DNA from: Thermoanaerobaculia bacterium
Lineage (GTDB): Bacteria > Acidobacteriota > Thermoanaerobaculia > Multivoradales > JAHEKO01
DNA length: 64,000 bases
Assembly: GCA_945787635.1 (NCBI GenBank)
Contig: CALZIK010000052.1
Location: forward strand, 1 to 64,000
Reading direction: 5' to 3'
Below are positions 17,046-22,183 of this stretch, one piece after another (the stretch's first letter is position 1; every line of letters starts with the position of its first letter). The notes beneath the pieces are model-generated. The model searched no databases, was not told the origin of the DNA, and saw nothing but the letters and a program-made list of their open reading frames with translations. The position numbers and the translations under genes were made by a program.

Positions 17046-18134
17046 TCAGCCTGCGGCCCGTATCGAGGCGATCGGAGGCAGGTTGGCGGCCACCAGGCTC
17101 CAGGTCGCGCCGCCGTCGGCCGACCCATACACGGCTCCGGACTCGGCGCCGAAATAGAGGCCGAGTGGGTTGGCACCGTCGTGGCAGAATCCCTGCCGCA
17201 GAACCGTGAGGAAGGCGTTTTCCTGAGGCAGACCCTGGGCACGCGCGCGCCAGCTCGAGCCGCGATCCGAGGTTTCGAACACCCGGAGCTTGCCTTCAGG
17301 CGTCACCCGATCGATGTCCGCGACCAGCGGTATCACCCAGGCGCGGTTCGGATCCCGGGGATCGGCGACGATCGGGAAGCCGAAATCGGAGGGCAGGCCG
17401 TTCGGGTCGCCGACCGCCGCGATGTCGTTCCAGGTGTACCCCGCGTCGTCCGATCGGTACACGCCGCCGTGAAACTGCATGTAGAAGGTGTTCGGCTCGA
17501 CCGGCGACTGCTGGAGCTTGTGAACGCAGTGCATGATGGTGTCCGCTCGCGCGTCCTCGGGAAGGTACCTGGGCACCAGGCCCTCGGAATAGTGCGACCA
17601 GCTCTCGCCCCCGTCCTCGGTCTGCCAGACACCCACGGCGGACATGGCGAGCGTCAGCCGATCAGGCTGTCCCGGCCACAGGCAGATCGAGTGCAGGCAG
17701 AGCCCACCCAGGCCGCCCTCCCAGTCGGGACGGGAAGGCTGGTCCCACAGTGCGCGGTTGAGCGCCCATGTACGGCCTGAATCCTGGCTCTTGAACAGTG
17801 CGGCGGGGGCAACACCCGCCCAGAGCACCCCGTCTTCGAGGCCGGGTGTGATCACCCACACCCTGCTGACGGCGGCTTCCGTGTCTTCCGGAAAGGCCGG
17901 ACCGTCGGCCTGCTCCCAATCTCCGGTCGGATCTTCGGCGATGTAGACGTGCGGGCCGAACTGACCGTGAGTGACCGAGGCGTAGTAGAGGCCGGTGCGC
18001 GGGTCGCGTATCGCGTACTCGACGGCCTGGCCCTCGAACTGGCGGGTTACGACATCCATCGCCTGTCCCCGGGGTCCGCGCAAGACGAACAGGCCCTTCT
18101 TGGTTCCGACCAGAATCTCGCTTGTTTCTTTCAT
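17046..18134 (-). CDS. BNR/WD40-like beta-propeller protein (exo-sialidase-like fold)
   Basis: A 362-aa beta-propeller with Asp-box-like repeats (for example SQDSGRTW, TEDGGESW, SDDAGYTW, TSDRGSSW, SADGGATW). The start ATG at 18134 has GGGAGGA upstream. There is no export signal and no sialidase Arg triad or FRIP motif that I can recognise, so a hydrolase function should not be assumed. Its start overlaps the stop of the ThiS/MoaD-like gene by 4 bp, so the two proteins are probably made together. Confidence 0.8.
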   Translation of the reverse strand: MKETSEILVGTKKGLFVLRGPRGQAMDVVTRQFEGQAVEYAIRDPRTGLYYASVTHGQFGPHVYIAEDPTGDWEQADGPAFPEDTEAAVSRVWVITPGLEDGVLWAGVAPAALFKSQDSGRTWALNRALWDQPSRPDWEGGLGGLCLHSICLWPGQPDRLTLAMSAVGVWQTEDGGESWSHYSEGLVPRYLPEDARADTIMHCVHKLQQSPVEPNTFYMQFHGGVYRSDDAGYTWNDIAAVGDPNGLPSDFGFPIVADPRDPNRAWVIPLVADIDRVTPEGKLRVFETSDRGSSWRARAQGLPQENAFLTVLRQGFCHDGANPLGLYFGAESGAVYGSADGGATWSLVAANLPPIASIRAAG

Positions 18135-18397
18135 GCTTGTCCTCCCGAAATGGCTTGCAGGACGTAGATCTCGTCGTCGGGTCCGACAGCGGCATCGAGA
18201 GGCGCCTTGGTGGCACCCACGAAGACGTTGACGTGCTGGCGAATGCGCCCTTGATCGTCCAGGATCCATCCCTTGAGGTCGGGGTGCGCCAGCTCGAGGG
18301 ACCGCAGGCAGTCTCCGACGGTCGATCCGGTCGCGGCGACGCGGTCACGCCCGGACGCGCGGCTCTTGAGGGCCGTCGGCAGGATGATCGTACTCAC
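18131..18397 (-). CDS. ThiS/MoaD-like ubiquitin-fold protein
   Basis: An 88-aa protein with the beta-grasp sulfur-carrier pattern: a hydrophobic N-terminal strand, a ...GRIRQHVNVFVG segment, and DEIYVLQAISGGQA at the C-terminus. Sulfur carriers normally end in Gly-Gly. Here Gln-Ala follows the GG, so it would need trimming to be activated, or it is not a sulfur carrier. No ThiF/MoeB-type E1 enzyme or molybdopterin gene is nearby. Its stop codon overlaps the BNR gene start (ATGA), and it is divergent from the receiver-LpxC gene. Confidence 0.82.
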   Translation of the reverse strand: MSTIILPTALKSRASGRDRVAATGSTVGDCLRSLELAHPDLKGWILDDQGRIRQHVNVFVGATKAPLDAAVGPDDEIYVLQAISGGQA

Positions 18398-18452: not shown

Positions 18453-19757
18453 ATGGTCATGTCGGACTTGGTTCTTATCGTAGACGACGAGCCGGGTATC
18501 TTGACGGCTCTCTCGAACGTCCTTTCGGATGAGGGTTTCGAGACCCTCTGCACGGAGAGCGGTGAACAGGCGCTCGTGCTGTATCGAGACCGCAAGCCGG
18601 ACGTGGTGTTTCTGGATATCTGGATGCCGGACAGGGACGGCCTGGAGACTCTCCAGGCGCTGCGTGAGACGGATCCGGCGGCTGCCGTGATCATGATGTC
18701 CGGCCATGGCACAACGTCGACGGCGGTCAAAGCCCTAAAGATGGGCGCGTTCGACTACGTCGAAAAGCCGCTGTCCTACAGCCAAGCGGTGGAGAGTGCT
18801 CAAGGCGCGATCGCCTACCGACGGAACGCTTCCACGAGCGGCACTCTCCTCACTTCGGCGATCAGGTCGGAGGATCGGCTCGCCGCCGACTTCGAGTTCC
18901 GTCCGCCGGATGTCCCGCTGCTTCACAGCACGGATGTGCCGCAGAGGACCGTGGCTCAGAGCACGGTGCTTTACGGCCTAGGGCTGCACTCGGGTTTTCG
19001 CACCGGCATGGTGATTCAGCCTCTGCCTCCGAACTCGGGGATCCATTTCTTGACCTTGCCGACGAACACCCACATTCCGGGCTTCGTCGGAGTGGTTGCC
19101 GAGACTTCCTACGCGACGACCCTCGAAAGAGACGGCGTCGGCATCAAGACGGTCGAGCATTTCCTGTCGGCGTGCCACGCGCTCGGGATCACCAACGTGC
19201 TGGTCAAGGTCCACGGGGAGCTGCCGGTGCTCGACGGCTCTGCGATCGAGTTCTGCCAGACTCTTTCCGAGGTCGGCGTCGTCGATCAGGGTGAGCCCCG
19301 AAAGGAGATCATCATCGACCGCACCTACAAGGTGAATGGCGGCGAGAAGAGCCTGACTCTCGAGCCGTCCGACGAATTCGAAGCGTCCTACGTTCTCGAC
19401 TACCCGGCGCCGGTCGGCCGCCAGAGCTACGCCTATGGGCCCTTGCGTCCCGAGACCTATCTGGAGCAGATCGCTCCGGCCCGGACCTTCGGCTTCGTCA
19501 AGGATCTCGACATGATGAACGAGTTGGGCTTGGGTACCGGTGGAAGGCTCGACAACTGCATCCTGGTCGGTGAGGACGACATCATCAACACCGAGCTGCG
19601 CTTCCCGGACGAATTCGTGCGCCACAAGATTCTCGACGTGATCGGAGATCTGTATCTACTCGGCTATCCGGTGCGTGGCAAGGTCACCGCCAGCCTCACA
19701 GGCCATCGCGACAACATCGCGATCCTCCGGAAGATCCTCCAAGAGAACTCGACCTAG
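18453..19757 (+). CDS. lpxC: Response-regulator receiver domain fused to LpxC deacetylase
   Basis: A 434-aa fusion. Residues about 5-122 form a CheY-like receiver with the acidic pair D11/D12, phospho-acceptor D55 (VVFLDIWMP), S83 (MMSGHG) and K105 (YVEKP). Residues about 165-430 form UDP-3-O-acyl-GlcNAc deacetylase, the committed step of lipid A synthesis. Its catalytic set appears intact: E235/H236 (TVEHFLSA), H391 and D395 (RHKILDVIGD), H418 (TGHRD), plus ARTFGF and GGRLDNCI. Ordinary LpxC is about 300 aa without a receiver. I chose ATG 18453 because longer starts run into the divergent ThiS-like gene; ATG 18459 is an alternative. The E1 gene follows 11 bp later. Confidence 0.92.
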   Translation: MVMSDLVLIVDDEPGILTALSNVLSDEGFETLCTESGEQALVLYRDRKPDVVFLDIWMPDRDGLETLQALRETDPAAAVIMMSGHGTTSTAVKALKMGAFDYVEKPLSYSQAVESAQGAIAYRRNASTSGTLLTSAIRSEDRLAADFEFRPPDVPLLHSTDVPQRTVAQSTVLYGLGLHSGFRTGMVIQPLPPNSGIHFLTLPTNTHIPGFVGVVAETSYATTLERDGVGIKTVEHFLSACHALGITNVLVKVHGELPVLDGSAIEFCQTLSEVGVVDQGEPRKEIIIDRTYKVNGGEKSLTLEPSDEFEASYVLDYPAPVGRQSYAYGPLRPETYLEQIAPARTFGFVKDLDMMNELGLGTGGRLDNCILVGEDDIINTELRFPDEFVRHKILDVIGDLYLLGYPVRGKVTASLTGHRDNIAILRKILQENST

Positions 19758-19768
19758 AGCGGTCCGCG

Positions 19769-22183
19769 GTGGAAGGAATCGATACGAGGCACGAGGGCTC
19801 GGCGGCCCAGTTCACCCAGGAAAGCATCCTGCGGGACTACCGGATCGGTTTCCGCAGCCGGGAGACGAGTCTTCTCGGCCGCCGCGAGGTCTTCTCGGGA
19901 AAGGCCAAGTTCGGCATTTTCGGCGATGGCAAGGAGGTCGCCCAGCTGGCCCTGGCCCGCGCCTGCAGGCCCGGCGATATCCGCTCGGGCTACTACCGCG
20001 ACCAGACCCTGCTCATGGCGCTGGGGCTGCTCGGCGTCGAGAGTTTCTTCGCTCAGCTCTATGCCGACGCGGACCCCGAGCGAGAGCCGAACTCCTCCGG
20101 TCGACAGATGACGGCGCATTTCGCGACGCGACTTCTGGACGACAAGGGTCGCTTCATGGATCTCACCCAGGGCGTCCATTCCTCGGCGGACGTATCGCCC
20201 ACCGGCTCACAGATGCCGCGGCTGGTGGGCTTGGCCTACGCGTCCCGGCTCTACCGGGAGCTCAAGCTCCAGGGGTTCGAGGGGTTTTCCAGCAACGGTG
20301 ACGAAATTGCGTTCGGCACGATCGGCAACGCCACCTGCGCGGAGGGACTCTTCTGGGAATCGATCAACGCCGCCGGGGTTCTTCGAGCACCCATGCTGCT
20401 CTCGATCTGGGACGACCACTACGGCATTTCGGTGCCCAACGAGCTCCAGATCACCAAGGGCGACCTGAGTGAGTTGCTCCAGGGGTTTCGCAGGGCGCCA
20501 GGCGATAAGGCCGGCTTCGACATCTACAGTGTCAAGGGCTGGGACTATCCGGGCCTGTGCGAGACGTATCTCAATGCGGCCGAGATCGTCCGACTCGAGC
20601 ACGTGCCGGCGATCGTGCACGTGCGTGAGATGACGCAGCCCCAGGGACACTCGACGTCGGGCAGCCACGAACGGTACAAGTCGGCGGAGCGGTTGGCGTG
20701 GGAAGAGGAGTTCGACTGCCTTCGCCAGATGCGATCGTGGATGGTCGCGCAAGGGATCGCGTCGGAGTCCGGTCTTCTGGAACTGGAGGAGCAAGAGAGG
20801 GCAGCGGTGCGTGTGAGCCAGCATTCGGCTTGGGAGGCTTTCAGAACTTCGGTCGATTCGGATCGGCGCATTTTTGCCTCCTGGGCGTCACAGCTCGCGA
20901 GCGCCTCCGGACATGGCGAAGAGATCCGGTCCGTCGAGAAACGCTTGGATCGCCAGCCCAACGTGCTGCGCCGGGATCTTGTGGCCGCGGCGACCGAGCT
21001 CCTGGTTGTGACCCGTGACGAGAACCTCTCCGAGCGAGAGGAGATCGCCAAATGGCGCAGGCACCAGCTCGAGGCGAACGGCGAGCGCTACGGATCCGAT
21101 CTCTACAGCGAAACGGCCGCCTCGGCCCTGGCCGTACCGGTGGTGCCGGCCGACTCCGAACACGGTGCCGAGAGCCTGCGGGGCTTCGAGATCCTGAACG
21201 CGTGCTTCGACCATGCCTTCGCTCGGTATCCGCAGCTCGTGGCCTTCGGCGAGGACGTGGGGAAGCTCGGCGATGTCAACCAGGGCATGACCGGTCTGCA
21301 GGAAAAGTACGGCCCGCTGCGCGTGTCGGACACCGGCATTCGTGAGGCGACGATTCTGGGCCAGGCCATCGGGCTGGCCATGCGCGGCTTCCGGCCGATA
21401 GCCGAGGTCCAGTACCTCGACTACCTTCTGTATGCGCTTCAGATCATGTCGGACGATCTGGCGACCGTGCGCTGGCGCACCCGCGGCGGGCAGTGCGCGC
21501 CGGTGATCGTGCGCACTCGCGGCCACCGACTCGAAGGCGTCTGGCATTCGGGCTCTCCAATGGCCGGCATTCTGAATCTGATTCGGGGCGTGTATCTGTG
21601 CGTGCCGCGCGACATGACCCGAGCCGCGGGGATGTACAACACCCTGCTTCAGGCCGACGACCCTGCGGTGGTGGTGGAAGTGCTCAACGCCTACCGGGCC
21701 AAGGAGCCCATGCCCACGAACATCGGTGACTTCACCGTGCCCCTAGGCGTTCCAGAGGTTTTGCGCGCCGGCGAACATGTGACTCTGGTCACCTACGGGG
21801 CCTGCTGCAAAATTGCGCTGGAGGCCGCCCAGATGCTGGCGACGACCGGTGTCGGGGTCGAGGTGATCGACGTTCAGACGCTGCTCCCGTTCGACGACGA
21901 GTCGCGGATTCTAGAGTCGGTCAAGAAGACCAACCGGGTCGTCTTCGTCGACGAAGACGTTCCCGGCGGTGCCACGGCCTACATGATGCAGAAGGTCCTG
22001 GTGGAACAGGAGGCCTTCCACTGGCTCGACGCGGAGCCGCTCACCGTGAGCGCCAAGGCCCACCGCCCTCCGTACGGCTCCGACGGGGACTACTTCTCGA
22101 AACCCAACCGCGACGAGATCTTCCAGGCGGTCTACGGCCTGATGCACCGCTGCGACCCTGCCCGATACCCAGAAATCTTGTAG
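19769..22183 (+). CDS. Fused E1 alpha-beta subunit, thiamine-dependent 2-oxoacid dehydrogenase
   Basis: An 804-aa thiamine diphosphate enzyme in which the alpha-like half (about residues 1-400) and beta-like half (about 465-804) of a branched-chain/pyruvate-type E1 are one chain. The cofactor motif appears as NGDEIAFGTIGNATCAEG (a GDE variant of GDG ... N). The beta half has FGEDVGKLGDVNQGMTGLQ, SDTGIREATILGQAIGLA and a C-terminal transketolase domain. It would decarboxylate a 2-oxoacid and pass the acyl group to a lipoyl E2, but no E2 or E3 gene is in the window. GTG start. It shares an operon with receiver-LpxC. The terminal TAG lies inside a palindromic repeat. Confidence 0.88.
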   Translation: MEGIDTRHEGSAAQFTQESILRDYRIGFRSRETSLLGRREVFSGKAKFGIFGDGKEVAQLALARACRPGDIRSGYYRDQTLLMALGLLGVESFFAQLYADADPEREPNSSGRQMTAHFATRLLDDKGRFMDLTQGVHSSADVSPTGSQMPRLVGLAYASRLYRELKLQGFEGFSSNGDEIAFGTIGNATCAEGLFWESINAAGVLRAPMLLSIWDDHYGISVPNELQITKGDLSELLQGFRRAPGDKAGFDIYSVKGWDYPGLCETYLNAAEIVRLEHVPAIVHVREMTQPQGHSTSGSHERYKSAERLAWEEEFDCLRQMRSWMVAQGIASESGLLELEEQERAAVRVSQHSAWEAFRTSVDSDRRIFASWASQLASASGHGEEIRSVEKRLDRQPNVLRRDLVAAATELLVVTRDENLSEREEIAKWRRHQLEANGERYGSDLYSETAASALAVPVVPADSEHGAESLRGFEILNACFDHAFARYPQLVAFGEDVGKLGDVNQGMTGLQEKYGPLRVSDTGIREATILGQAIGLAMRGFRPIAEVQYLDYLLYALQIMSDDLATVRWRTRGGQCAPVIVRTRGHRLEGVWHSGSPMAGILNLIRGVYLCVPRDMTRAAGMYNTLLQADDPAVVVEVLNAYRAKEPMPTNIGDFTVPLGVPEVLRAGEHVTLVTYGACCKIALEAAQMLATTGVGVEVIDVQTLLPFDDESRILESVKKTNRVVFVDEDVPGGATAYMMQKVLVEQEAFHWLDAEPLTVSAKAHRPPYGSDGDYFSKPNRDEIFQAVYGLMHRCDPARYPEIL

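What the first reader, a model, noticed from the sequence alone, without database searches (positions are those of the whole stretch)
18453..19757. Response-regulator receiver domain fused to LpxC
The committed enzyme of lipid A synthesis carries an apparently phosphorylatable CheY-like domain (D11/D12, D55, S83, K105) on its N-terminus, and both halves keep all expected catalytic residues. LpxC in Enterobacteria is controlled by proteolysis; here a two-component signal could control it directly at the protein level. No histidine kinase gene is adjacent.
Basis: partly seen in the sequence, partly recalled or inferred. Interest (0 to 1): 0.8.

Follow-up and report, generated by a model that had tools for sequence, protein, structure and literature searches.

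The report
LpxC fused to a two-component receiver
In this bacterium and in many relatives from at least two phyla, the enzyme that commits the cell to making lipid A (the base of the outer membrane) carries a built-in signal-receiver domain, probably switched by a membrane sensor kinase called NtrY, which would be a direct control of outer-membrane synthesis that I could not find described.

Summary
Window 18453-19757 (+) encodes one 434-residue protein with a complete CheY-like receiver (7-113), a variable linker and a complete LpxC (164-429). It is the only LpxC found in its genome (97.7% complete). It is no assembly accident. The same fusion, with the phosphorylation and catalytic residues kept, occurs in about 36 of 59 related genomes, in a second Acidobacteriota lineage, and in about 74 of 345 sampled genomes of the phylum of a Syntrophobacterales genome. 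All 87 fused LpxC domains form one clade apart from stand-alone LpxC.
The new point is a likely partner. In relatives with stand-alone lpxC the order is smpB | lpxC-DUF4390-ntrY-ntrX-selB. In genomes with the fusion, lpxC and ntrX are both missing from exactly this locus and the NtrY kinase is left without its regulator. At 13 distant loci the NtrY gene lies directly upstream of the fused gene (gap -4 to 78 bp). Some of those proteins are an NtrX (receiver-AAA+) with LpxC at the end.
Best reading: NtrY phosphorylates Asp55 and thereby sets LpxC activity. Phosphotransfer, its effect and its direction are inferred, not shown. I found no paper describing this. New variant of a known kind.

The parts
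18453..19757 (+). receiver-LpxC fusion gene, 434 aa plus stop; the only LpxC found in the genome
18471..18791 (+). receiver domain (residues 7-113), NtrX-like; D11, D12, D55, S83, K105
   Evidence: conservation; receiver tree
18615..18617 (+). codon of Asp55, the predicted phosphorylation site, within the D-I-W motif (W57 invariant in 73 fused proteins)
18792..18941 (+). linker (residues 114-163): end of the last receiver helix, then an unconserved low-confidence stretch, then the strand leading into LpxC
18942..19739 (+). LpxC deacetylase domain (residues 164-429); E235/H236, H391/K392, D395, D399, H418; protein ends 5 residues after the domain
19769..22183 (+). downstream gene, 11 bp after the fusion: 2-oxoacid dehydrogenase E1 with alpha and beta parts in one chain; neighbour only, no functional link argued

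Best explanation
[quoted passage not shown] A membrane sensor kinase of the NtrY family (in this genome outside the window, G000 contig 201, 16684-18846, behind a DUF4390 gene) autophosphorylates and passes the phosphate to Asp55 of the receiver. The change in the receiver is relayed through the linker helix to the LpxC domain and raises or lowers its activity, so that the envelope signal sets lipid A output in one step instead of through transcription by NtrX. Shown here: the fusion, its conservation and purifying selection, its single origin, its status as sole LpxC, and the loss of lpxC and ntrX around a retained ntrY. Inferred: phosphotransfer from NtrY, effect on activity, direction. By analogy with other receiver-enzyme proteins such as CheB (own knowledge), the unphosphorylated receiver most likely restrains the enzyme.
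For: Complete domains and active sites. Receiver dN/dS (0.04-0.17 in seven pairs) is about that of LpxC (0.06-0.15), while the linker is usually freer. Sole LpxC. All 87 fused LpxC domains are one side of a branch against 31 stand-alone ones (SH-aLRT 89). NtrY evidence: (1) where the order keeps stand-alone lpxC the cluster is lpxC-DUF4390-ntrY-ntrX; (2) in the 19 fused genomes of the order examined, DUF4390-ntrY is kept and none has lpxC before it or ntrX after it, although two contigs end 35 and 359 bp past ntrY; smpB on one side (16) and selB on the other (11) mark the same locus; (3) the NtrX ortholog (60% or more) is absent from all but three fused genomes of the order; (4) ntrY lies directly upstream of the fused gene at 13 loci, gap -4 to 78 bp; (5) 11 of the fused proteins are receiver-AAA+-LpxC chains; (6) a NtrY taken from such a pair finds the window genome's NtrY as its best kinase over the full length, E 4e-113 against 5e-52 for the next; (7) fused receivers group with NtrX and share its D-x-W motif, which the degP-pyrE paralog lacks. 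NtrYX already represses lpxC transcription in Rhodobacter and Caulobacter (PMC7240162, PMC12444477), and a regulator in Desulfovibrio has lpxC as its only target (PMC3333781).
Against: No biochemical data. In this genome ntrY is not linked to the fused gene. Three fused genomes of family f6 keep an NtrX ortholog apart from ntrY, and G306 keeps the whole old cluster beside a fused copy. Two draft fused genomes (G007, G009) show no NtrY. At 25 of the 30 best fused loci of the second phylum no NtrY lies within the 1.5 kb fetched upstream. The receiver tree rests on 122 columns and is weak. An orphan NtrX-like regulator between degP and pyrE could also serve NtrY.
Confidence: 0.66

Rival explanations
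1. The receiver is phosphorylated but acts on the amount or place of LpxC, not on its catalytic rate: it recruits a protease or adaptor, or tethers LpxC at the membrane near NtrY.
For: LpxC is controlled by proteolysis in enterobacteria (review PMC12444477); the protein ends 5 residues after the domain, so the C-terminal tail that carries the E. coli degron is missing and another handle would be useful; the linker is long and unconserved.
Against: No protease or adaptor link was found. AlphaFold places the two domains with high global confidence in the window protein (pTM 0.89), which leans towards a packed arrangement, though only 0.79 in a distant member.
Confidence: 0.17
2. The receiver is phosphorylated by another kinase or by acetyl phosphate; NtrY was kept for a different regulator, such as the orphan NtrX-like protein between degP and pyrE.
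For: In this genome ntrY and the fusion are unlinked, many other kinases are present, and the degP-pyrE regulator has no kinase beside it.
Against: That paralog is also present where NtrY still has NtrX and lacks the D-x-W motif. NtrY lies directly upstream of the fused gene at 13 loci. lpxC and ntrX vanish together around ntrY.
Confidence: 0.2
3. The receiver is a structural relic (folding or dimerisation) with no signalling role.
For: Receiver domains can act without phosphate (own knowledge); linker length varies.
Against: All five phosphorylation residues are invariant in 73 proteins down to 39% identity; strong purifying selection on the receiver; adjacency to NtrY.
Confidence: 0.06
4. 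Artefact: two genes joined by a sequencing or assembly error.
For: The genome is a draft in 203 contigs.
Against: The same fusion is read in 34 full-length copies in the order and in dozens from other lineages, assembled independently.
Confidence: 0.005

Closest known systems
NtrY-NtrX two-component system and its effect on lpxC (Rhodobacter sphaeroides PMC7240162; Caulobacter, reviewed in PMC12444477)
   Same: NtrY-type kinase (transmembrane region, HAMP, PAS, HisKA, HATPase), NtrX-like receiver, lpxC as a target
   Different: There NtrX lowers lpxC transcription, apparently indirectly in Rhodobacter; here the receiver is part of the LpxC protein and the DNA-binding part is gone
DVU2934 regulator of Desulfovibrio vulgaris, whose only mapped target is lpxC (PMC3333781)
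   Same: A two-component regulator devoted to lpxC in a sulfate reducer; the paper notes lpxC beside the regulator operon in Syntrophobacter fumaroxidans
   Different: Acts on the lpxC promoter; no receiver-LpxC protein is described
Response regulators with enzymatic output, such as CheB
   Same: N-terminal receiver, linker, C-terminal enzyme
   Different: LpxC output; an essential biosynthetic enzyme instead of a signalling enzyme
FtsH/LapB-controlled LpxC of Escherichia coli
   Same: Same enzyme, same committed step, control at protein level
   Different: Degradation there; a receiver domain and no C-terminal tail here
Bifunctional LpxC-FabZ (NCBIfam NF009667)
   Same: LpxC as part of a fusion
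   Different: Fused to a dehydratase at the other end; this protein scores 192.5 against a cut-off of 465

Membership tests
LpxC deacetylase (PF03331, TIGR00325) | Full-length domain match over the curated cut-offs | tested here: met
LpxC deacetylase (PF03331, TIGR00325) | Zinc ligands and catalytic residues (E. coli E78, H79, H238, D242, D246, H265 by own knowledge; here E235, H236, H391, D395, D399, H418) | tested here: met
   invariant in 73 fused proteins
LpxC deacetylase (PF03331, TIGR00325) | Deacetylase activity | not testable with these tools
   sole LpxC of a genome that also has lpxB makes activity likely
Response regulator receiver (PF00072) | Acidic pair, phospho-acceptor Asp, Ser/Thr and Lys | tested here: met
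Response regulator receiver (PF00072) | Phosphorylation by a cognate histidine kinase | not testable with these tools
   kinase inferred from gene context only
NtrX / NtrC family regulator | Receiver of the NtrX type | tested here: inconclusive
   best solved receivers are 4d6x and 5m7n (NtrX entries by own knowledge); tree is weak; D-x-W shared
NtrX / NtrC family regulator | Sigma-54 AAA+ domain and Fis-type HTH | tested here: not met
   absent in the window protein; an AAA+ domain is present in 11 long relatives
NtrYX system | Kinase gene adjacent to its regulator | tested here: not met
   not in this genome; ntrY stands alone on contig 201; met at 13 relative loci
FtsH/LapB-controlled LpxC | C-terminal tail beyond the catalytic domain | tested here: not met
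   protein ends 5 residues after the Pfam domain
LpxC-FabZ bifunctional enzyme | Score over the NF009667 cut-off | tested here: not met
   192.5 against 465

The most novel reading that the evidence does not exclude
An essential enzyme has taken the place of a transcription factor as the output of an envelope two-component system: NtrY phosphorylates LpxC itself and sets lipid A flux directly. The receiver-AAA+-LpxC chains would be intermediate forms that may combine a regulator with the enzyme, and the co-loss of lpxC and ntrX would record the switch from transcriptional to enzymatic control.
Probability: 0.5. Interest if true: 0.88.

Novelty: new variant of a known kind. Interest (0 to 1): 0.78.

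Why it matters
[quoted passage not shown] Its known controls are protein degradation and transcription. A family in which a kinase signal reaches the enzyme itself would be a new control principle for outer-membrane synthesis, spread over at least two phyla, and would make the role of NtrY in envelope control directly testable with purified parts. It also offers an unusual evolutionary record: the same kinase with a separate regulator and enzyme, with the two joined in one long chain, and with only the receiver left on the enzyme.

Tried and rejected
Artefact and second-copy explanations: rejected. Second LpxC genes in G029 and G042 lie on small contigs, in G029 in the old smpB context, in genomes with 4-5% contamination, so I did not count them as real paralogs. 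I suspected that the Syntrophobacterales genome G341 lacked NtrY; it has DUF4390-ntrY broken by an assembly gap. Whether lpxC and ntrX were lost once or several times in the order: the NtrY tree separates the two stand-alone families, but holding them together is not rejected (p-AU 0.156), so only one loss is certain there; the mixed state of family f6 suggests a separate later loss of ntrX. Whether the long or the short fusion came first is not resolved by the LpxC tree. Kinase-receiver specificity positions show the D-x-W motif but no clean code. Domain contacts could not be read because no coordinates are returned. Seven paper searches were made; none found a receiver-LpxC protein.

Full report
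Observation. Window 18453-19757 (+) reads as one protein of 434 residues. Pfam finds a nearly complete receiver at 7-113 and a complete LpxC at 164-429, and the LpxC equivalog model is passed. A whole-genome search finds this as the only LpxC (genome 97.7% complete), and LpxB is present once, so the lipid A pathway is there and this protein should serve it.

Not an accident. Searching 59 relatives, 34 genomes hold the whole fusion and two more hold most of it; stand-alone LpxC is found instead in families f3 (11 genomes) and f8 (3) of the same order. Over a sample of 297 genomes of the phylum, the fusion also occurs in G306 of the same class and in four genomes of family f41 in another class, 40-45% identical; in f41 it is the only LpxC. 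A scan of named genomes gave Acidobacteriota and Thermoanaerobaculales genomes, one filed as Myxococcales, and a Syntrophobacterales chromosome with two copies, again without a stand-alone LpxC. In the phylum of that last genome, 58 of 345 sampled genomes show a receiver-to-LpxC match in the search, and 16 more were found fused on reading; one of these (G446) has its frame broken in the receiver.

Conservation. In 73 aligned fused proteins, D11, D12, D55, W57, S83 and K105 and the LpxC residues E235, H236, H391, K392, D395, D399 and H418 are invariant. Between close pairs the receiver is under purifying selection about as strong as LpxC, and the linker is usually freer. AlphaFold gives both domains with high confidence (mean pLDDT 90.7, pTM 0.89, weak only in the linker and near 351-370); a distant member gives pTM 0.79 with a disordered linker. 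Foldseek matches the LpxC part to solved LpxC structures. The coordinates are not returned, so contacts are unknown.

Origin. All 87 fused LpxC domains lie on one side of a branch from 31 stand-alone ones (SH-aLRT 89): one fusion event is the simplest reading, with later spread between phyla. The fused LpxC of the order is not the descendant of the stand-alone lpxC of the order (about 39% identity, separate clades), so the old gene was replaced. Fused receivers group with NtrX receivers and not with the PilR-like and other regulators sampled, but on only 122 columns.

The kinase. In stand-alone genomes the order is smpB | lpxC-DUF4390-ntrY-ntrX, then selB. NtrY is a full sensor kinase with HAMP, PAS, HisKA and HATPase domains. 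In 19 fused genomes of the order the same place reads smpB | DUF4390-ntrY, then selB: lpxC and ntrX are both missing and the kinase is kept. In this genome that is G000 contig 201, 16684-18846. An NtrX ortholog (60% or more) is found in all 14 stand-alone genomes but in only three fused ones, all of family f6, away from ntrY; there the residue that is W57 in fused proteins is lost. G306 keeps the complete old cluster together with a fused copy, which looks like a recent gain. In the second phylum the ntrY gene lies directly upstream of the fused gene at 13 loci, with gaps of -4 to 78 bp where a start could be placed. Eleven fused proteins there are long: receiver, sigma-54-type AAA+ with lid, then LpxC, that is, an NtrX with LpxC attached. 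A NtrY from one of these pairs picks out the NtrY of the window's genome as its best kinase, far ahead of the next and over the full length. G341, which first seemed to lack NtrY, has it across an assembly gap.

Mechanism. The simplest account is that NtrY phosphorylates the receiver on LpxC and so sets the rate of lipid A synthesis. The chain of evidence is genomic. Phosphotransfer, effect on the enzyme and direction are not shown. It fits what is known: NtrYX lowers lpxC transcription in Rhodobacter and Caulobacter (PMC7240162, PMC12444477), and in Desulfovibrio a regulator has lpxC as its only mapped target (PMC3333781). The fused form would carry the same link out within one protein. The main rivals are control of LpxC amount or place instead of rate, and a kinase other than NtrY.

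Limits. Gene counts come from draft genomes. The number of independent losses of lpxC and ntrX in the order is not settled (p-AU 0.156). The paper library is open-access only, so a description in a subscription journal or in a domain database could have been missed.

Verdict. The parts are known; their combination and the replacement of a transcription factor by an essential enzyme are, as far as I could find, not described.

Noticed in passing
19769-22183 +: A 2-oxoacid dehydrogenase E1 with alpha and beta parts in one 804-residue chain, 11 bp after the fusion gene; a similar gene lies near the fusion in G008 (L117).
   Followed up: partly
18131-18397 -: A small divergent ORF that by eye resembles a ThiS/MoaD-type sulfur carrier, followed by a BNR-repeat protein (17049-18137 -); the small ORF was not tested with a profile.
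   Followed up: no
13740, 15104, 22184, 23800, 23844, 23884: Six copies of a 20-base element close to GTCGACACGGAGGTCGACCG, mostly at gene edges; 0.01 expected by chance.
   Followed up: partly
L277, L278, L279, L280, L286, L290-L295: Long fused proteins of about 700-740 residues: receiver, sigma-54-type AAA+, lid, then LpxC; the examples read lack the usual GAFTGA loop by eye.
   Followed up: partly
L038, L039 (CP070774.1): Two receiver-LpxC genes in one Syntrophobacterales chromosome, each behind a similar gene for a predicted membrane coiled-coil protein, and no stand-alone LpxC.
   Followed up: partly
L206, L207 (G306): One genome holds the old lpxC-ntrY-ntrX cluster and also a receiver-LpxC copy 66% identical to the window's.
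   Followed up: partly
L299, L300, L301: NtrX orthologs of family f6 genomes with the fusion have lost the D-x-W tryptophan, as if released from NtrY.
   Followed up: partly
L296 5297-6682 -, L297, L298: An orphan NtrX-like regulator between a degP-like protease gene and pyrE, with no kinase beside it in the loci read.
   Followed up: partly
L276 (G446): A long fused gene whose frame is broken inside the receiver; sequencing error or decay not decided.
   Followed up: no
   Followed up: no
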